From Ehretia macrophylla (taxonomy: Eukaryota; Streptophyta; Magnoliopsida; Boraginales; Ehretiaceae), in NCBI GenBank assembly GCA_037974665.1, contig CM075772.1, positions 42,684,552 through 42,748,551 on the forward strand: DNA of 64,000 bases, given 5' to 3'. How positions within the stretch are numbered: position 1 is the first letter of the stretch; every line of letters starts with the position of its first letter. The translations under genes and the position numbers were made by a program. Below the pieces are notes generated by a model. That model did no database searches and was not told the origin of the DNA. It saw only the letters and a program-made list of their open reading frames with translations. This document shows positions 1 through 9,812 of this stretch, one piece after another.

Positions 1-1852
1 TTTTATCAACAGGAAGTGTGTAAACACCCATCTTCAATTCATGCTCACCGCATAATTCCGGACGGTCACAAAAGGTTGATACATCAACTCTAGCTTTGAG
101 GTTGTCTTTTGTCTTACCCTTGACCGCCATCACCGTGTTGAAAACATTATCAAACACATTTTTTTCAATATGCATCACATCCAAATTGTGTCTGACAAGA
201 TGTGTCTTCCAATAAGGCAAGTCCTAGAAAATACTTCTCTTCGTCCAATTGTGCCAATCCCCAAAACCGGATAGTTTGCTTTCTCTCATGTCGTTTATGT
301 TCGGGTAATCTTTCACTAGTTCCCACAACTGCATACCATCTAATCTTGGCGGTGGTGGATCAGTTTCAACTCTACCTTTGATAAAATTCTTTTTGTCACG
401 CCTTAATGCACTATTCAATGGTAAGAACTGACGATGACAATCAAAGAAAGAATTTTTTCTACCTGCTGGTAATCGAAATGCTTTAGACTTATCCATACAA
501 TATGGGCATGACAGTTTTCCATGTGTGCTCCTTCCAGACAACATACCATATGCTAGGAAATCATTTATTGTCCACATCAAAACAGCCCTTAACCTAAAAA
601 AATTTTTTATGGCAACATCATAACAAGGTGCACCTTCGAACCATAAATTTTGTAATTCTTCGATTAAAGGCTCTAGGTACACATCAATATTCTTCCCAGG
701 ATTCTTGGGACCTGGGATAAGCAGGGTTAAAAACATGAAAGGATCTTTCATGCACATCCACGGTGGCAAATTGTATGGGGTTAAAATGACCTGCCAACAA
801 GAATAAGGTTTCGCATTTGAACTGAACGGATTAAAACCATCTGCGCACAAACCAAGCCGAACATTTCTGGGTTCACATGCAAATTCAGGATATACACTAT
901 CGAAATATTTCCATCCCTCAGCGTCTGAGGGATGACAAATTTTTCCTTCCTCAACCTGGTGGTTCTTGTGCCACTGCATGTGCTCAGCTGTCACCTTTGA
1001 CATGTATAGCCTTTTCAACCTTGGAGTCAATGGGAAAAACCGTAATTGTTGATATGGTTTCAACTTACTCCGTTTTGAACCACGTGTTGTTGGTTTGAAA
1101 CGTCGGTGATGACAACGCGGACAACAATCTAGGTGTTTTCTGTCATTGTAGAATAAGGTACAACCGTTTACACAAACATCAATCTTCACATATCCTAGTC
1201 CCAAGGGTCTAATTAATTGCTTACACCTGTAAAAGTTTTCAAGCATCGTATGCGTATTCGGCAACGAATCCCTAACTGTTTCAATCATTGTGTTAAAGCA
1301 TAGTTCGCTCATGTTATGCTCGGCCTTGACATTCATATAACGAGACACAGCAGATAACTGCGTTAAGTTTTCACAACCTTCATACAGTGGTAAATCAGCA
1401 GCCTTCAACAACTGAAAAAACTGCTGTGCTTCAATGTTAGGATCTTCTGTATAAAAGTTTTCATCACCATACCATTCTGAACCAACAGCGTCAAATACCA
1501 TTGTCCTATAGTTATTTCTTTCTTCTACCATCTCGTTGTAATCATTATTTTGAAAATTGGACGTACGTATATTACAATTATTTGACATGTCTTCCCCGTG
1601 TTCAGTCCATTTATAGTAGTTTACCATGAAACCTTTCCTGTAAAGATGAAGTATGACCTCCTCGGATTTTTCAAAACTATGATTTTTGCATTTGGCACAC
1701 GGGCATCTTATTTTTTCACCATCCATGTAATATCTTTGGCCACGTGCGAAATCTACGAATTCATGTACACCAATAACAAATGCCTCGTTAAAATGCCCGT
1801 CAGGATCGTGACGATGATACATCCATTCACGACTTGTATCCATATCGAACAA
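1..1852 (-). pseudogene. TNP2-like CACTA transposase, nonsense-mutated, 3' end outside window
   Basis: The protein would cut and join the CACTA element ends. The ORF from 1852 (or an ATG at 1843) gives 542 aa. Residues about 4-60 match the plant transposase-associated N-terminal domain (REWMYHRH; paired cysteines in CPCAKC). A CPRCHHRR zinc-like knuckle lies mid-protein. The Transposase_21 core follows (GLCADGFNPF, VILTPYNLPPWMCMK, CPYCMDKSKAF). The frame stops at TAG (minus strand, 224-226) directly after WTKRSIF. The same frame then continues open to base 1 with typical downstream TNP2 residues (LPYW, LDVMHIEKNVFDNV). Family members normally have Trp at the stop position, so a single TGG-to-TAG change is the simplest explanation. 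The copy is probably not autonomous unless the stop is read through. Confidence 0.9.
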
Positions 1853-3770
1853 AAATTTCCTATGTAATATATAACATATTCAATAAATGACTTATTGATG
1901 TTTCGTTACATTTAGAGCATAATATTAGGACCATAATAGATACACTTACCTTTTTCTATGTAACATTATGTGTAATAAATGCATTTATGCTTAATATATG
2001 TAAAATAGTTTATTTCACAAAGATCCATGTAGATAAAGATCTTAATTGCAACAAATTAACTACTTACTTCTTAAGCTAACTTCCTAACTTAACTTAAGTA
2101 CCTATGGTTTAACAAAAATTTTTATTTTCTTCTATTGTTTAAAATGTCTCATTTTAGTCACAACATATAATTCAAAAAGTAAATATCTCGCCCCTATTAT
2201 TTTTAATTAGTGTCAATGTTGTCCAAATGGTTTTCTTAAAATTTTAAATTCGTCTATATTATATAAGGAGAAAACTGACATTTTGTTAGGAATAATCAAA
2301 ACAATAGGGACGCAATTGATAACTTTAAACATTACAGAATAAATTGAAACTTTTCAGCCAACAATAGGGACTATATTTAGACATTTTCAACAATATGGAA
2401 TACACTAAATTTTTTTGCAAACCATATGGACTAAATTTGAGATTTTCCATACTTATCTTACCACTCTAATCTAATCTATGTTACTTTCTTGTATTTAAAG
2501 TCCACCATCAAACATTCATTAACAAAACCAAGCATTGAAGATAATTAAAACACATAGTATATAATAAGAGTAATTACAACACGTACTACGACCTAACAAG
2601 CCATACAATATATAAATTTAAAATACAATTCTTAAACCAACACATATACAAGCAACGCTTATACTTCTTAAGTGAAACAAGATCAAAATGAAGTACGTAA
2701 CCTATACGTCTTACATACTAAACTACTTATCTTACTTATCTGAGTGTGTTAACATAACATATTAATTTGTCTTGCTAAACTTATAAAATTAAATTGTATA
2801 TTTTTATTACTTAATAATTATCTAAGTTTATTAACCTAACTTATTTAATTACTTAGTCTATTATCTTAAATTTAATTACTTATTAAATTAGTCAACATAT
2901 CATACTATCATGGAAACCGTCTAACCTAATTTAACTGACTTAATTGTCAAGACACACACAGAAGATGAAATCGGTATTCTTACTTGTTAATCACCTTAAA
3001 TTTCTCACTCAAATTAACTTAACTTTACTTAAACATCTTAATACAACTGCAAAAATCTAATTCTCTACCAACAACAAAATACCCATTCATCCATTTACAC
3101 AAACATCATATTCACAATACACTTTCAACTAAATTATTATAATATACAAAATCAAATACATAACAAATAATCACAATAACTTTAATTTAATTAAACGGAT
3201 TTACATTTACAAATAAATTTATTTTAAAACTTCCAACTCGTACAATCATCAAACTCACCTGAGCTGATTGAAACTAGATAAGTCACATCTAAATATCTAA
3301 AGCCCCAAACCTTGCAAAATAAAGTCAAACACATTGTATTAATCAAAAAAATAAATGTATAATCAAAAAATATTTATTACATTAACACTATGTATTTTTG
3401 GCAAAAAAAAAAATTTAAATAAAATAAATCTGAAAAAATAAAAAAAGTTCAGAAATATATTAAGCAAATATTGCTCAACCAAAGTTTTGGTTAATTAAAA
3501 AACAATTTTATTATATAAAACAAAGAAAAAAACTGAAAAATGAAAAAAAAATTATAAAACTAGGAAAAAAATAGAAAATTATACAAAAAAAATACATAAA
3601 TAAAATTATATATATAACAAAATAATCAAACACATTATATAAATGTTTATATACACATATATATACATACATATACATATAGTACATATATATATATATA
3701 TGCATATATACATACATTGCAAAAGAAAAAAATAGGGAGTATATTTTCGAATTTTACCTAATATTCAAGG
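1853..3770. other. AT-rich transposon interior, no gene seen
   Basis: This stretch lies upstream of the TNP2 start and is strongly AT-rich, ending in TA/CATA simple repeats (about 3640-3720). I see no coding signal on either strand. It may hold the transposase 5' UTR and introns. Confidence 0.6.
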
Positions 3771-3774
3771 TAAG

Positions 3775-3945
3775 AGAGGGTGTTGAGGGGTGGGGATGAG
3801 GGGTGGGGGGGTGGAGGGGTGAGGGAGGGGGGGAGGGGCGTGGGGGACACGAGGGGGTGGGGGGTGAGGGAGGGGGGGAAGGGGGTGTTGCTAAGTTTGT
3901 TTTTTCGCTAGGGGTGGGGGGCTTCTGTTTTTTTTTTTTTTTGAA
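3775..3945 (+). repeat. G-run-rich tract followed by poly-T
   Basis: About 120 bases consist largely of GGGG, GGGTG and GAGGGG runs on the plus strand, followed by a T15 run near 3930. Many runs of three or more G within short loops fit the pattern for G-quadruplex formation. It borders the palindrome array. Confidence 0.8.
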
Positions 3946-3975
3946 TTAAAAGAGGGCAGCAGCTGTAAGCGTCTT

Positions 3976-4868
3976 CAATTATGGGAACCAGCATAGCTGG
4001 TTCCCCATGGTGACGGCCCAGTGACTAACTGGGCCGTCACCAAAGTTTGGGGACCCGATTTGACGGGTCCGCATAGAGAAGGCCTGGTCCGTGGAGACGG
4101 ACCAGGCCGTCTCCCAAGGGTTTCCAATAGGAGACGGCCTTGGCCGTCTCCAAAATGGAGACTGGAGACTGGCCTGGTCCAGTTCCAGTCTCCATTGAGG
4201 AGACGGCGTGGGCCGTATCCTCAATGGAGACCGGGCTCTCCATTATGGAGACGGCCCAGGCCGTCTCTATAATAGAGACGGACCAGGCCGTCTCCAAAAT
4301 GGAGACTGGACCTGGTCCACTTCCAGTCTCCATTTTGGAGACGGCGTGGGCCGTCTCCAAAATGGAGACGGACCAGGCCGTCTCCAATATAGAGACTGGC
4401 CTGGTCCAATTCCAGTCTCCATTGAGGAGACGGCGTGGGCCGTCTCCTCAATGGAGACCGGGCTCTCCATTATGGAGACGGCTCAGGCTGTCTCCAAAAT
4501 GGAGACGGATCAGGCCGTCTCCAAAATGGAGACGGACCAGGCCGTCTCCAAAATGGAGACTGGCCTGGTCCAGTTCCAGTCTCCATTGAGGAGACGGCAT
4601 GGGCCTTCTCCTTAATGGAGACCGGGCTCTCCATTATGGAGACGGCTCAGGCCGTCTCCTCAATGGAGACGGGGCTCTCCATTATGGAGACGGCTCAGGC
4701 CGTCTCCAAAATGGAGACGGACCAAGCCGTCTCCAAAATGAAGACTGGCCTGGTCCAGTTCCAATCTCCATTGAGGAGACGTCGTGGGCCGTCTCCTCAA
4801 TGGAGACCGAGCTCTCCATTATGGAGACGGCCCGACCGTCTCCAAAATATAGACGGCCTGGGCCGGTT
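3976..4868. repeat. Array of GC-rich palindromes, about 27-bp units
   Basis: The region is a run of short perfect or near-perfect palindromes separated by 5-base AT spacers (AAAAT, TCAAT, ATTAT). The commonest unit is the 22-base palindrome GGAGACGG-ACCAGG-CCGTCTCC. Variants have other cores (GGCCTTGGCC, GGCCCAGGCC), and the left edge has unrelated palindromes (for example GGTGACGG...CCGTCACC at about 4010-4040). A longer unit containing CTGGTCCAGTTCCAG recurs at about 4171, 4398, 4562 and 4747. GGAGAC motifs also occur in the subterminal region near 6780-6960, so the array may be an expansion of transposase-binding sites. All six frames stay partly open because of the repeat; none looks like a gene. 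Confidence 0.92.
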
Positions 4869-5170
4869 ACAATTTCTAGAGATGAATTAAGCCATCGCCA
4901 ATTGTTTAATTTTCCTTGTCTTTCAATTTTTAGTTATAATGATTTAATATTTGATAGTTTATAATATATTGGTATAAATTATAAAATAAATGTTAATATT
5001 CATATTTAATTTCAATTGTGTATCTCAATTTATCAAACTAATATGTTGTTGAATTAGTAATTAATTTTTTTTTAAAACAAATATTTATAAAAAAAATTTA
5101 AAATATAAAGTAGATGAAGGTAATTCATTAATAATTCAAATGCTTTTACGTCATTATGTAGTAATTGGGA

Positions 5171-5600
5171 ACGTCATGTCCCCAATTATTTGACCTATGG
5201 AAGACGAATGGTACGCAGCCACGTGGTCACGAATCATACATACGATAGGGACATGTGAACTCTGCCACGCGGCATACGGAAATTGAATTGGCAGGGCCCC
5301 CGTTCGTAAGGTAGATGGATTCAGTAACTTTTCAACATCGAAAATATCGTGCACGCCGTGTCCCTTATTATTTGACCAATTGCAGACGAATGGTACGCAG
5401 CCACGTGACCGCGAATCATGCGTAGGATAAGAACATGGTGTACTATACCACGGGGCAGCAGGAAATTGAATTGGCATGGCCCCGGTTTGCAAGGTAGATG
5501 GACTCAACAACTTTTCATTGTCAAAATTAGCGTGCACGCCAGGTCCCAAATAATTTGACCCATGGAAGACAAATGGTACGCAACCACATGACTACGAAAC
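5171..5600 (+). repeat. Tandem repeat, 182-183 bp unit, 2.3 copies, with G-boxes
   Basis: The anchor AGACGAATGGTACGCAGCCA recurs at 5202 and 5384, and in diverged form at 5567, giving a period of 182-183 bases. Copies 1 and 2 carry CACGTG G-boxes at 5220-5225 and 5402-5407; the third copy has CACATG. The repeats end about 90 bases before a TATA box, so they may act as an upstream enhancer for the ORF at 5772. That role is inferred. Confidence 0.85.
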
Positions 5601-5689
5601 ATTCGTGCATATATTACCATATTATAAAATGCTGGGGTGTCTCGCTACTGTCATCAAGTTGTCTCTACATAATTCAATTACTTGTTTGC

Positions 5690-5697
5690 TATATATA
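5690..5697 (+). promoter_or_regulatory. TATA box upstream of the small ORF
   Basis: TATATATA lies 75 bases before the ATG at 5772, at a spacing compatible with a short 5' UTR. A second TATAAAA lies at about 5622. Confidence 0.45.
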
Positions 5698-5771
5698 GCA
5701 GTCGAAAGTGTGCTTTCTCACACCGTCTAGAATTTTCAAAAAAAATAGATTGGAGTTAAATTGTTTCAAGG

Positions 5772-5990
5772 ATGAGCAAGGATCAACAACACCACTCAGT
5801 TTCTTTTCCAAGACCAACAAAAGATGAAGAAGGGGATACGATGAAACCGTATCCACATTATAGCAAATACGTTAAACCCCAACTTGATCTAAATGCTCCG
5901 ACAAAATACGACGGATACATATTTAATGCCCAAGTAGTCCAAAAAGTTCAAGATGACATGCTACGGATCTATTGCCCAAACGTATTTTAA
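5772..5990 (+). CDS. Hypothetical 72-aa protein inside the CACTA element
   Basis: The function is not recognised. The ORF starts with MSKDQQHHSVSFPRP and is hydrophilic. A central segment is rich in Tyr, Pro and Lys (YPHYSKYVKPQLDLNAP), followed by a short possible helix (AQVVQKVQDDMLRIY). There is no signal peptide and no membrane segment. It lies on the strand opposite the transposase, between the palindrome array and the subterminal repeats. A TATA box and G-box tandem repeats precede it, which favours transcription. It may be the first exon of a longer gene, an accessory transposon protein, or captured host sequence. Confidence that it is translated is modest. Confidence 0.35.
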   Translation: MSKDQQHHSVSFPRPTKDEEGDTMKPYPHYSKYVKPQLDLNAPTKYDGYIFNAQVVQKVQDDMLRIYCPNVF

Positions 5991-6690
5991 TAATATTTAT
6001 ATTTTTTTATCATATTGGAAACATCGGCATTAGTACTATTTGTTCCAATGCGTACCAATGTTATTGCGTTGTTCTGCATGATGTGTAGTGTATGGTTGTT
6101 ATGTTTTAGTGATCACGATGTACTATGTTAGGTATTAAGTTGGTGTGTTTATGTACTTCGAGCATATAATTTGTAACATGTTAATTATGTTTCCTCTTTT
6201 GTCGTTTTGTTGTTGTATTAATAAATGATTATATGTACTCCTTTATTAATTATGAATGTAAAATTAAGTTTATGTTTGTAATGATTTAACTCTTATAATA
6301 AAAAATCTTAAGTTGTTTCCTATTTAATCGTTTTGTTGATTTAGAAGAAATAATAGAAATAGTGGTGCATTACGTTAAATATTAATCATATATATAAATT
6401 GTTCTTCACGGAGACAATAATGCGTCCCATTAACTTTTCGAAGATTATAAATATGTTTTATTTATAATAATAAAAGACATATTTTGTTTTGTAAGTAATG
6501 ATGAATAACTTATCGTTACAATCAAAGCCTCAAATGTGGACGACTTACTTATGTAGATGCCAATTCATGACATTATAAGACGGAAAATTAGTAGTGACTA
6601 CTTATATGTATAATTATTACATTAAAATAATTCATCAATATATAATTATAAATTTTTGGCAACGACAGGGTGACTAAATTATGACTTGTT
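5991..6690. other. AT-rich segment without recognisable gene
   Basis: This is the 3' flank of the 72-aa ORF inside the CACTA element. I found no coding similarity. Possible AATAAA-type signals occur (for example near 6217). Confidence 0.5.
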
Positions 6691-7100
6691 TTGTGGATCA
6701 TCTCGAACTATGAGCCACTTGGCGACAGCATGAAGACAACATGTTATTATCTGTCACCAAATTGTCACCATATGGTCACTTTTGGAGACCGCATATGATG
6801 TTGTCACCATATTCTCGCCAATTGGCGACGGCATGGGGACGGTATGGAGACAACATGTCATTAGCTGTCACCAATTAGTCACCATATGGTCACTTTTGGA
6901 GACCGCATACGATGTCGTCACCAAATTGTCGCCAATTGGGGACGACATGGGGACGGCATATGTAGTTCGTCTCCAAAACGAAACAAAATGGTCACTAAAT
7001 TGTCACTAAAGTTGCGACATCTTACACCGTCTCTAAACCGTCGCCAAGTTGGTGACAAAATGGCGACAACCTGTCGCAAAAATACGTTTTTTTTATAGTG
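6690..7100. repeat. CACTA subterminal repeat region and 5' terminal inverted repeat
   Basis: Motifs TGTCACCA, TGTCGCCA, TGGCGAC and GGAGAC alternate in both orientations. A longer unit containing ATATGGTCACTTTTGGAGAC occurs near 6771 and 6885, a period of about 114 bases. The terminal 16 bases, read on the minus strand from 7100, begin CACTATAAAA. Such regions are the transposase binding sites in this superfamily. Confidence 0.85.
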
Positions 7101-7944
7101 AATGACGTTTTACTAGAACGAATTTAATGTTTCGCTTCCGTTCTACGTCAAAGGGAGACTTCCGTCCACGTAGCCAAGAATATTCCACATCTTCTCTAGT
7201 ATAAATAGTATTTTGACATTGATCTATGATTATTATTACCATCGATTTTGTCGCCATTTACCATATATGGAGATATGATATTTAACGAAACTTTCTAGAA
7301 ACAAATACTGCAGTCGACCAATCATCTTTGATGCCATAGAATTATAAGGTCCTCGGGTGAATTTCGTCTTATCTTTCCTTGAAAAATCCCTTTTTTTAAA
7401 TTTTCTTCTTGCATAATTATTCTCATTGTTAAAGTGCCTTTACTAATTTTTATAAAAAAAATAAATTGCGTCATAGGTCACTAAATTTAGATGAAAATTT
7501 AAATTTTCCAAAATTTTATTTGTTTTAAATCATCACCTGAGCAAATTATTTGTTTCATTTACTCTTCTATTAATTTTTTCAGCTAATTTTAAAGAATTTT
7601 TATTTTTAGTTAAGCAAAATTACCATTCGTCACACCATTTTCATAATATAAAATAGAATAATTCAAGGCCAGACCTCAAAAGATAAATAAAAACAAAAAC
7701 AAAAAAGAATATGTTGATATGACAAGAACTCTTAATAAATCAGAATTCACATAAAAAATACGCATAAGAGTACAATATAGAAGCACAACGTCCAGGACGT
7801 TTCACTCATGGAAATTTAGATGTTTTACATATATCTTACTATTCGTCACATAGGAACGACCTCGTTGACAAAACTTATTAATGCAGAATCAAATACTGAA
7901 GATTTGGAAATTTCGACATATTATTTGTGAGGCTTTATAATTAA
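7101..7944. other. Intergenic, no gene seen
   Basis: Unique AT-rich sequence lies between the CACTA terminus and the P450 stop codon. It includes the 3' flank of the P450 gene. Confidence 0.5.
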
Positions 7945-9812
7945 TTACAGTACGTACTTTCTTGCTACTAGACACAGAGGAGTTTTCTTAAGCATGGCTA
8001 GTCCAGGGAAAGCTTCGGTTGACACATCTTCTTCAGTCATTCCAGGAGGTAATAGCCAATCAAATGAGTAGAGAAGATTGGCAAGTGCAAGCTCCACTGT
8101 TACTATTCCCATAGCGATTCCAGGGCAGCCTCTCCTGCCTGCCCCAAATGGAATGTAGCCAAAGTGTTGCCCTTTATAGTCAATTTTACTATCCAAGAAT
8201 CTCTCAGGCAAGAACTCATTTGGATTGTCCCAGTATTCTGGATCTCTTGCAATGGCCCATGCATTAACATAAACCATGGATTTGGCTGGGATTTCATATC
8301 CACCTATAGTGCATTTTTCTGTTGTTTCCCTCGGTAACAAGAGGGGAGTTGGTGGATATAATCTCAAAACCTCTTTTATGATTGCCCTGAGATACGAAAA
8401 ATTCTGAATATCCTCCTCTTTTAATAAGCCTTCTTTTTTACCTATACTTCGTACTTCGGCTTGAACTTTTTTCATAACATGAGGTGCCTTCATTAGGGCA
8501 GTCATAGTCCAGATTGTTGTGGCTGCACTTGTTTCTGTTGCAGCAACAAAAATATCCTGTGAAGAAAACATAAGAACCAAAATCAAGTTAATTGATAATT
8601 TCTGTAATGTTCTATATTGGTGGAAGACATGTTACGTTAGTGGTTTTGAGCCAGTGAATTTGAACTCAAGTAGTTATTTTTTGAACACAGATACTAGTCT
8701 TGGTTATGTTTATGATTTCTGAGCCTTTGGCATAACGACTTCTATAAAGTTAACAAAATCTCAAACTTTCCCAATGGTGGAACTTTATTAAGAATAATTC
8801 ATAACCTCATATCAATCCATTACCATATATATTTCTTGCTTTGGAGCTATAAGATAATTAATGATCGATTTGTAGCATGTATAAAATGAGAAAATTTGAA
8901 TCTTGTATTGCTTACCAGGAGCAAGCCTTTGACGTTTTCCCATGACAAGTCAACTGGAAGTGATTTTTCTTGTCTCAGTTGGAGCAAGAGACTAAGAATG
9001 TCCTCCTCCATCTCCTGTGGCCTATTTGGGTGGAGGTGCTCCTCGATAAGTTCCTGAGAGAATGAATCCAATGCGTGGACGCACTTCTCCAGTCTTGCTT
9101 TCATGCCAGTGAGAGTATCAATCCAACCTAACCATGGAAAAAAATTAGCGAAGAAGAAACCTCCCAACATGGCCTGAAATTCGCGAAGAAGTCCGTCGAA
9201 CCTTCTCCTTTCAGACCCTTCTTCATTATACCTCTTGCCAAAAGCAATCCTACAAATTAAGGTGCTTGTAAAAGACAATGCTATCTCAGACAAGTTTAAG
9301 ACTTCACCAGTCGAAGCGTGCTTCGATATCTGGTTTATCATGTGTATAACTTCGTCTTCGCGAAGAGGACGGAAAGACTGAACTTGTTTGAGGCTGAAAA
9401 GACGAAGAATACAAATTTTTCTCATCTCCCTCCAGTAATCGTTGTAAGCAGAGAATGCCATATCCGTGGCATTGTAGGTTAACTTATTCGTGTTGTAAAG
9501 TACAGCCCTTCCAGAAAAAATCATGTCATTTGTTTTCAAGGCTTCTTCAGTCAATTTTGCTGAAGAAATCACAAGTAATGGCTTTGAAGCAAGCTTCATC
9601 ATCATCACTGGACCATATTCTTCTGATAGTTTCCATAAGTAGTAATGAGTGTTGGTGGTGTCAATTTGATGCAAGTTTCCTAATAAAGGAAGCCCTGGAG
9701 GACCTGGTGGAGCACGGCTCTTTCCAACACGAGATGATCTCTTGTATCTGTGAATAACAAGAAGGAGAAAGAATGGGAGAGCTAAGAGGAGATAATATGC
9801 TGGTAATATCAT
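7945..9812 (-). CDS. Cytochrome P450, CYP71 clan (CYP71/CYP83-like), two exons
   Basis: Exon 1 is 8916-9812 and exon 2 is 7945-8556. The intron 8557-8915 has GTAAGC...TTCACAG ends in phase 0, giving 502 aa, the usual length. Residues 1-22 form the ER membrane anchor, followed by the proline hinge APPGPPGLPLLGN (34-46). The I-helix motif is AATET (304-308), with Ala where Gly is more common. The K-helix ExxR is 361-364 (EVLR). PERF is at 416-419. The haem loop is PFGAGRRGCPG with the axial Cys at 443. All residues needed for a working monooxygenase are present. The one-intron structure and the AxxET region fit A-type plant P450s, which oxidise specialised metabolites. The substrate cannot be told from sequence alone. 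Confidence 0.95.

What the first reader, a model, noticed from the sequence alone, without database searches (positions are those of the whole stretch)
3976..4868. Dense array of perfect 22-bp palindromes inside a CACTA element
Roughly 25-30 GC-rich palindromes with near-constant 5-base AT spacers, about 27 bases per unit, lie over 2 kb from the element terminus. Each single strand can fold into a hairpin, and sister units can form long cruciforms. The unit shares GGAGAC with the subterminal region but is far more regular than normal subterminal repeats. It could be an amplified transposase-binding platform, a small-RNA source or a replication-slippage product.
Basis: partly seen in the sequence, partly recalled or inferred. 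Interest (0 to 1): 0.7.

Follow-up and report, generated by a model that had tools for sequence, protein, structure and literature searches.

The report
Hypervariable hairpin-repeat array in plant CACTA transposons
A family of plant jumping genes carries, just upstream of its transposase gene, a fast-changing block of mirror-image repeats built from the short motif found at its ends, possibly a landing pad for the element's own DNA-binding protein.

Summary
Window 3976-4868 holds 26 short inverted repeats where 100 simulations gave 0-3. They are not perfect 22-bp palindromes: typically 8-bp arms around a 6-base centre, with 5-bp spacers. The array lies in a 12.0-kb CACTA element, 2.2 kb inside its right end, upstream of tnp2.

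All 13 unit clusters that I fetched (of 20 listed) lie in CACTA elements. The array is in 30 of 30 family copies read, 10 of them chosen by the element's end and not by the array. Seven of the 13 clusters are divergent CACTA elements that keep the 22-bp dyad (GGAGAC-N10-GTCTCC) with unrelated spacers.

The half-site GGNGAC is dense (45-52 per kb) in the array and both subterminal regions, and 0-5 per kb elsewhere in the element. Array length is hypervariable (613-2,123 bp; 0 of 435 pairs equal); larger indels are mostly whole units.

Best reading: a noncoding control region bound by the element's TNPA-like protein, working like VANC-target arrays. Binding, transcription and methylation were not tested; a neutral palindromic minisatellite or a hairpin leader remain open. 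New variant of a known kind.

The parts
3976..4868 (.). Palindromic array: 26 inverted repeats (arm >= 8), half-site GGAGAC/GTCTCC, mostly 5-bp AT-rich spacers
3983..4108 (.). Leading palindromes of other sequence (arms GGGAACCAGC; TGGTGACGGCCCAGT; GGCCTGGTCCGT)
   Evidence: counterparts of the first two in older copies L029/L030
3771..3920 (.). G-rich tract on + (C-rich on the tnp2-sense strand); a G-rich or C-rich tract is also seen by eye beside the array in the 7 divergent loci printed
3751..3761 (-). Splice-donor-like TTAGGTAAAAT, in 29 of 30 family copies (function inferred)
1853..3770 (-). AT-rich stretch, putative first intron (inferred)
1..1852 (-). tnp2 coding part (Transpos_assoc, Transposase_21); in-frame TAG at 224-226 in this copy; continues left of the window in L009
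4957..4972 (-). CCAATATATTATAAAC, TATA-like, about 98 bp upstream (tnp2 sense) of the array in the 30 family copies read, with one base change in L017 (function inferred)
5171..5606 (.). 183-bp tandem repeat (2.4 copies)
5772..5990 (+). 72-73-aa ORF, 72 aa or longer in 27 of 30 family copies; no Pfam match
6660..7100 (+). Right subterminal region, 20 GGNGAC/GTCNCC half-sites, ending in the TIR ...TTTTTTTTATAGTG at 7100

Best explanation
The array is a hypervariable noncoding control region of a young CACTA transposon family. Its unit is a 22-bp dyad of two GGAGAC half-sites. I infer that the element's TNPA-like (Transposase_24) DNA-binding protein, which should bind the GGNGAC repeats at both ends, also binds this array and there regulates or de-silences the transposase promoter/leader. 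Whole dyads are gained and lost by unequal exchange or slippage, so length differs from copy to copy while the dyad persists. Shown: the shared motif, the dyad's persistence in divergent CACTA elements with unrelated spacers, its restriction to CACTA in the sample, length turnover mostly in whole units. Inferred: which protein binds, that the array is in the transcribed leader or promoter, and any effect on methylation or expression.
For: Half-site density per kb: array 51.5, right subterminal 45.4, other parts of the element in the window 0-4.9, window outside the element 0.4; left subterminal 31 sites in 656 bp, element interior L009:4746-9000 0.94. 1,227 exact GGAGACGGNNNNGGCCGTCTCC matches on the two strands (some sites match on both), 0 for the reversed control. 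13 of 13 fetched clusters are in CACTA elements: 6 with this family's flanks, 7 divergent with a CACTA-type end. GGAGAC-N10-GTCTCC is the commonest adjacent arrangement in the 7 divergent arrays (34 of 110) although unit spacing differs. Of 40 subterminal hits 34 have the array, 24 by coordinates and 10 by reading; 6 were not examined. TATA-like and donor-like motifs flank it. Hosaka et al. 2017 (PMC5735166, passages) describe dense, fast-changing motif arrays as targets of TE-encoded anti-silencing proteins.
Against: Grammar differs from the subterminal repeats: inverted 11/16-bp gaps with third base A (1,155 of 1,223) in the array; in the right subterminal region no inverted 16-bp gap (0 of 356), 123 direct 11-bp gaps and a free third base. 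So a different binder is possible. No binding, expression or methylation data. Within the family, arm positions are hardly better kept than the non-arm positions 13-14, and arm changes are nearly all one-sided. The Transposase_24 matches are below Pfam's cut-off (24.9 and 24.8 bits against 28.7). The array shows no CpG protection (o/e 0.59-0.69 in 20 copies).
Confidence: 0.48

Rival explanations
1. Neutral palindromic minisatellite: a palindromic seed is prone to slippage and unequal exchange, spreads inside the element and hitch-hikes with it; no function.
For: Length hypervariability: 0 of 435 pairs equal; L013 and L051 have no substitution in 1,351 bp of flank yet arrays differ by 276 bp. 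Larger indels mostly in unit steps (27, 48, 21, 75 bp) in 11 related pairs. In 419 units from 20 copies arm changes are nearly all one-sided; two-sided ones are 15 cells of one inherited terminal unit and 3 single cells in the printed counts. Older copies L029/L030 carry only about 270 bp.
Against: Same 22-bp dyad kept in divergent CACTA elements with unrelated spacers; all 13 clusters examined are inside CACTA elements; never lost in 30 of 30 family copies despite fast turnover (20 of these 30 were however chosen by array similarity or are the window itself); kept in a 2.06-kb derivative (L045).
Confidence: 0.25
2. Structured RNA leader: the array is transcribed in an untranslated first exon and folds into hairpins that limit translation or feed small-RNA production.
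For: RNA fold of the tnp2-sense strand -675 kcal/mol, z -37.8 (20 shuffles); position between a TATA-like and a donor-like motif; palindromes of unrelated sequence beside the G-rich tract in different elements (GAGGGCAG/CTGCCCTC against TTGGATCAGC/GCTGATCCAA and close variants); 9-37 ATGs per array on the sense strand in 30 copies.
Against: Folding strength follows from the palindromes and is as extreme for DNA (z -37.5). Almost no two-sided arm changes within the family. No Rfam match at gathering threshold in window, L009 and L016. Transcription not shown.
Confidence: 0.18
3. Host transcription-factor platform: the dyads recruit a plant factor (for example a TCP-type GGNCC/TGGGCC site, recalled) that drives the transposase.
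For: GC-rich conserved centre GGACCAGGCC and TGGGCC variants; possibly promoter-proximal position.
Against: The same half-site fills the subterminal regions, where the element's own protein is expected. No enrichment test against known plant sites was made.
Confidence: 0.07
4. Captured host satellite that happens to sit in the element.
For: Satellite arrays inside CACTA elements are reported in Chenopodium (PMC8978399, passages).
Against: 13 of 13 examined clusters are in CACTA elements; half-site shared with subterminal repeats.
Confidence: 0.02

Closest known systems
Subterminal stem-loop repeats of soybean CACTA elements (Tgmt*, Tgm1; PMC2613891, section 7 and passages)
   Same: Dense repeats of one short motif, partly inverted, that can form stem-loops, in a CACTA element with tnp2, thought to bind a TNPA-like protein.
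   Different: There they lie within 159 and 732 bp of the ends. Here an additional block lies 2.2-3.1 kb inside, separated by about 1.8 kb nearly free of the motif, on the 5' side of the transposase gene, with its own dyad grammar and hypervariable length.
VANC-target tandem repeats of Arabidopsis VANDAL elements (PMC5735166 and PMC10398659, passages)
   Same: Noncoding, dense short-motif arrays inside the element; rapid gain and loss of repeats; lineage-specific forms.
   Different: VANDALs are another DNA-transposon group (Mutator-like, recalled). Their motif is arrayed in one orientation, here it is inverted. No VANC-like protein was found or sought here.
Maize Spm/En control regions (upstream region and GC-rich first-exon downstream control region; recalled; no open paper on them found; not held)
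   Same: GC-rich noncoding block between the terminal promoter region and the transposase coding part (recalled). TnpA activates Spm with demethylation (statement seen in PMC10398659).
   Different: No sequence comparison was possible, so whether Spm has anything like the palindromic, hypervariable array was not checked.
Satellite arrays in Chenopodium CACTA elements (PMC8978399, passages)
   Same: Tandem repeats inside CACTA elements.
   Different: The family described there (a 171-bp monomer in C. sosnowskyi) also occurs with no connection to CACTA. Here none of the 13 examined clusters is outside.

Membership tests
CACTA (En/Spm) transposon | CACTA-type terminal inverted repeats | tested here: met
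   Left CACTACAAAAAAACGG at L009:4090; right TATAGTG at window 7100; TGTAGTG in 18 of 19 sister copies, TATAGTG in L010
CACTA (En/Spm) transposon | 3-bp target-site duplication | tested here: inconclusive
   Window copy AAG / AAT, one mismatch; short divergent element L045 AAA / AAA; not tested for the other copies
CACTA (En/Spm) transposon | tnp2-type transposase | tested here: met
   Transposase_21 E 6.5e-79, DUF4218 1.4e-41, DUF4216 1.3e-23; interrupted by an in-frame TAG in this copy
CACTA (En/Spm) transposon | TNPA-like second gene | tested here: inconclusive
   Two exon pieces match Transposase_24 at E 2.6e-5 and 2.8e-5, below the curated cut-off; 4 other pieces of the presumed gene gave no match to it
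CACTA (En/Spm) transposon | Subterminal repeats at both ends | tested here: met
   20 half-sites right, 31 left
TNPA-type binding array | Same motif as the subterminal repeats | tested here: met
   GGNGAC in all three blocks, but orientation, spacing and third base differ
TNPA-type binding array | Bound by the element's protein | not testable with these tools
   No binding data
VANC-type anti-silencing target | Noncoding hypervariable motif array | tested here: met
   Hypervariable array; noncoding is by position and lack of a known protein, not proven
VANC-type anti-silencing target | Motifs in one orientation | tested here: not met
   956 of 1,203 adjacent gaps are inverted; so it is not filed as a VANC target, only said to work like one
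VANC-type anti-silencing target | Loss of methylation when the element's protein is expressed | not testable with these tools
   No methylation data
Ordinary genomic satellite | Long arrays outside the element | tested here: not met
   13 of 13 fetched clusters in CACTA elements; of 20 clusters listed on C1, 1 more was already held (L012) and 6 were not fetched; other contigs were not listed

The most novel reading that the evidence does not exclude
CACTA elements of this plant run their own sequence-specific anti-silencing or autoregulation circuit. The end-binding protein also reads an internal, hypervariable array of inverted dyads at the transposase promoter/leader, so array length sets each copy's activity. 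This would be a CACTA counterpart of VANC/VANDAL, with the dyad kept across divergent elements while spacers are replaced.
Probability: 0.3. Interest if true: 0.72.

Novelty: new variant of a known kind. Interest (0 to 1): 0.5.

Why it matters
It separates a motif block used inside the element from the same motif used at the ends, in a young family whose copies differ naturally in array length (613 to 2,123 bp), in one case with no flank substitution between two copies. That makes an open idea testable within one genome: that dense, fast-evolving target arrays let a transposon's own protein keep it from being silenced. If function is refuted, it is still a clear case of a palindromic minisatellite changing by whole units inside a transposon.

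Tried and rejected
Compensatory change between arms as evidence of hairpin selection: 419 units (137 distinct; units with more than 4 arm mismatches were not counted) from 20 copies; two-sided arm changes are 15 cells of one terminal unit and 3 single cells in the printed counts, so not supported within the family. Strand bias of ATGs as a sign of a translated leader: 770 (+) against 543 (tnp2 sense) over 30 related copies (one search had 766 and 540 with one array cut short), suggestive only, copies are not independent. Strict 11-bp (one helical turn) phasing as the array's rule: common in this family (417 of 1,203 gaps) but not in the 7 divergent arrays (3 of 110 at 11, 11 of 110 at 12), so dropped. 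Coding array: several open frames exist; not pursued, not formally excluded. Rfam: no match in window, L009, L016. CpG content: array o/e 0.59-0.69 in 20 copies, against 0.78, 0.60, 1.22 and 1.08 in four other parts of the element; no protection seen. Correction made on review: one search measured the array of L015 183 bp too short (it lacks a 183-bp repeat unit) and compared 434 of 435 pairs; redid all 435 pairs without that repeat, and its figures are used. Literature: searches on CACTA with subterminal/palindromic/tandem repeats, the Spm downstream control region, TnpA demethylation, satellites, anti-silencing, stem-loop arrays (listings, capped); no title or abstract start there described an internal dyad array of this kind, but the library lacks most subscription papers. 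No structure prediction was run: the presumed TNPA-like gene is split over weakly matching exons.

Full report
Where it lies. The window is C9:42684552-42748551 of an unnamed 1.58-Gb, 20-contig genome. Window 1-7100 is the right-hand part of a 12,011-bp CACTA element. Its left end, CACTACAAAAAAACGG, is at L009:4090 and its right end, TATAGTG, at window 7100. On the minus strand it carries tnp2 (Transposase_21 E 6.5e-79), DUF4218, DUF4216 and two weak Transposase_24 pieces. In this copy tnp2 has an in-frame TAG at 224-226. The flanking triplets AAG/AAT differ by one base.

The array. In 3976-4868 there are 26 inverted repeats with arms of 8 or more and loops of 8 or less, against 0-3 in 100 Markov simulations. 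The commonest unit is GGAGACGG-N6-CCGTCTCC; other units are about 30 bp and 16 bp long, and mostly 5-bp AT-rich spacers separate them. No 22-mer is fully self-complementary, so 'perfect' is too strong. Longer nested dyads exist (20-bp arms at 4326-4369 and 4415-4458). Folding is extreme for the two strand/molecule choices tried (RNA of the minus strand z -37.8, DNA of the plus strand z -37.5, 20 shuffles each), as palindromes must give.

Shared motif, different grammar. GGNGAC/GTCNCC occurs at 51.5 per kb in the array, 45.4 in the right subterminal region and 31 times in 656 bp of the left one, but 0-4.9 per kb in the other parts of the element inside the window, 0.94 in L009:4746-9000 and 0.4 in the window outside the element. 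In 20 copies, 956 of 1,203 adjacent array gaps are inverted, chiefly at 11 bp (417) and 16 bp (305), and the third base is A in 1,155 of 1,223 sites. In the right subterminal region of the same 20 copies, 158 of 356 gaps are direct (123 at 11 bp), 146 are inverted at 18-22 bp, none is inverted at 16 bp, and the third base is T, A, C or G; in the single left region read, 27 of 30 gaps are direct.

Sister copies. All 19 copies chosen by array similarity and all 10 chosen by the subterminal region carry the array at the same place. Of 40 subterminal hits scored (of 377 candidates), 24 lie next to array hits by coordinates, 10 were read, and 6 could not be fetched. Over the 30 copies the array runs from 613 to 2,123 bp, and none of the 435 pairs has equal length. 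In 128 pairs with under 1% flank divergence the median difference is 153.5 bp. L013 and L051 show no substitution over 1,351 bp of flank, yet their arrays differ by 276 bp. In 11 related pairs, indels of 10 bp or more are mostly unit-sized (27 nine times, 48 six times, 21 and 37 three times, 75 and 244 twice), next to 1- and 3-bp indels; array substitutions are 1.8-6.5%, more than in the flanks, though misaligned units inflate this. This is fast turnover in a young family; the pairs are not independent.

Genome-wide. The 22-base pattern has 1,227 matches on the two strands (some sites match on both), 0 for the reversed control. The places that the capped list shows fall, by my count, into 20 clusters on contig C1. 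I read 13 of these and held a fourteenth from the array search (L012). All 13 are in CACTA elements: 6 have this family's flanks, two of them older (L029, L030, 82-88% identical). The other 7 are divergent with a CACTA-type end word within 3.1 kb; 4 of these 7 (L037, L040, L045, L046) also match a subterminal region by BLAST, 3 (L031, L039, L044) do not. In the 7 the 22-bp dyad recurs (3-20 units per locus at 4 or fewer mismatches, 0 in 20 simulations each), but spacers are unrelated in sequence and length, from AAATTT to 50 bp and more. The dyad, not the 27-bp period, is what lasts. One of them, L045:412-2467, is a 2.06-kb element with AAA/AAA flanking triplets; its length leaves no room for the transposase genes, yet it keeps the array.

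Position. In tnp2 sense the order is CCAATATATTATAAAC, about 98 bp, array, C-rich tract, TTAGGTAAAAT, AT-rich stretch, tnp2. The first motif is at that place in the 30 copies read (one base change in L017) and the second in 29 of 30. I infer that the array lies in an untranslated first exon or at the promoter. No transcript data were available.

Selection. Within the family, arm changes are nearly all one-sided, which speaks against strong current selection on pairing, and conserved non-arm positions are kept about as well as arm positions. Between divergent elements, palindromes of unrelated sequence occupy the site beside the G-rich tract, which hints at a structural role there. Older copies L029/L030, 95.8% alike over their 3 kb and perhaps one duplicated segment, have arrays of about 270 bp, so the array may have grown in the young lineage; the number of independent cases is small.

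Comparison. Soybean Tgmt* has stem-loop-forming subterminal repeats of a 17-bp motif (PMC2613891, section 7 read). VANC targets in Arabidopsis are dense noncoding motif arrays in one orientation that gain and lose repeats (PMC5735166, passages), and TnpA activation of Spm correlates with demethylation (PMC10398659, passage). The likeness to Spm's GC-rich first-exon control region is recalled. The element is a CACTA member by ends, tnp2 and subterminal repeats. The array works, I think, like a TNPA or VANC target, but membership in either class was not shown.

Verdict. Real, CACTA-restricted in the sample examined, conserved as a dyad and hypervariable as an array. A regulatory binding platform is most likely (0.48); neutral minisatellite (0.25) and structured leader (0.18) are live rivals. 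On review the first two odds were moved by 0.02 because the corrected spacing counts show a larger difference from the subterminal grammar and the corrected length data a faster turnover.

Noticed in passing
window 5772-5990 (+): A 72-73-aa ORF with a TATA-like stretch by eye upstream reads outward to the element end; 72 aa or longer in 27 of 30 family copies, no Pfam match. Against L011, the older copy L029 has 5 nonsynonymous and 4 synonymous changes on 175:44 sites, a hint of past purifying selection; among the young copies changes are nearly all nonsynonymous, which shows none.
   Followed up: partly
window 5171-5606: 183-bp tandem repeat between array and that ORF, found in the family copies read; L015 lacks one unit. 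Possible promoter repeats or captured host DNA.
   Followed up: no
window 7101-9169 and L010:5934-8001: The copy at C9:42.61 Mb is a segmental duplicate: flank 99.5% identical over 2,069 bp, yet the element's non-array parts are only 95.7-98.3% identical. Gene conversion or faster mutation inside the element could explain it.
   Followed up: partly
window 224-226: In-frame TAG inside the tnp2 coding part of this copy.
   Followed up: yes
window 3771-3920: Long G-rich tract (GGGGTGGGGG...) beside the array, with a G- or C-rich tract seen by eye also in the 7 divergent loci printed; possible G-quadruplex or pyrimidine-rich leader.
   Followed up: no
L045:412-2467: 2.06-kb non-autonomous CACTA element with AAA/AAA flanking triplets that keeps the G-rich tract, the array, a left subterminal region and both end words.
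   Followed up: partly
L009:13-3878: Open frames left of the element look like a Ty3/gypsy-type polyprotein by eye; not tested.
   Followed up: no
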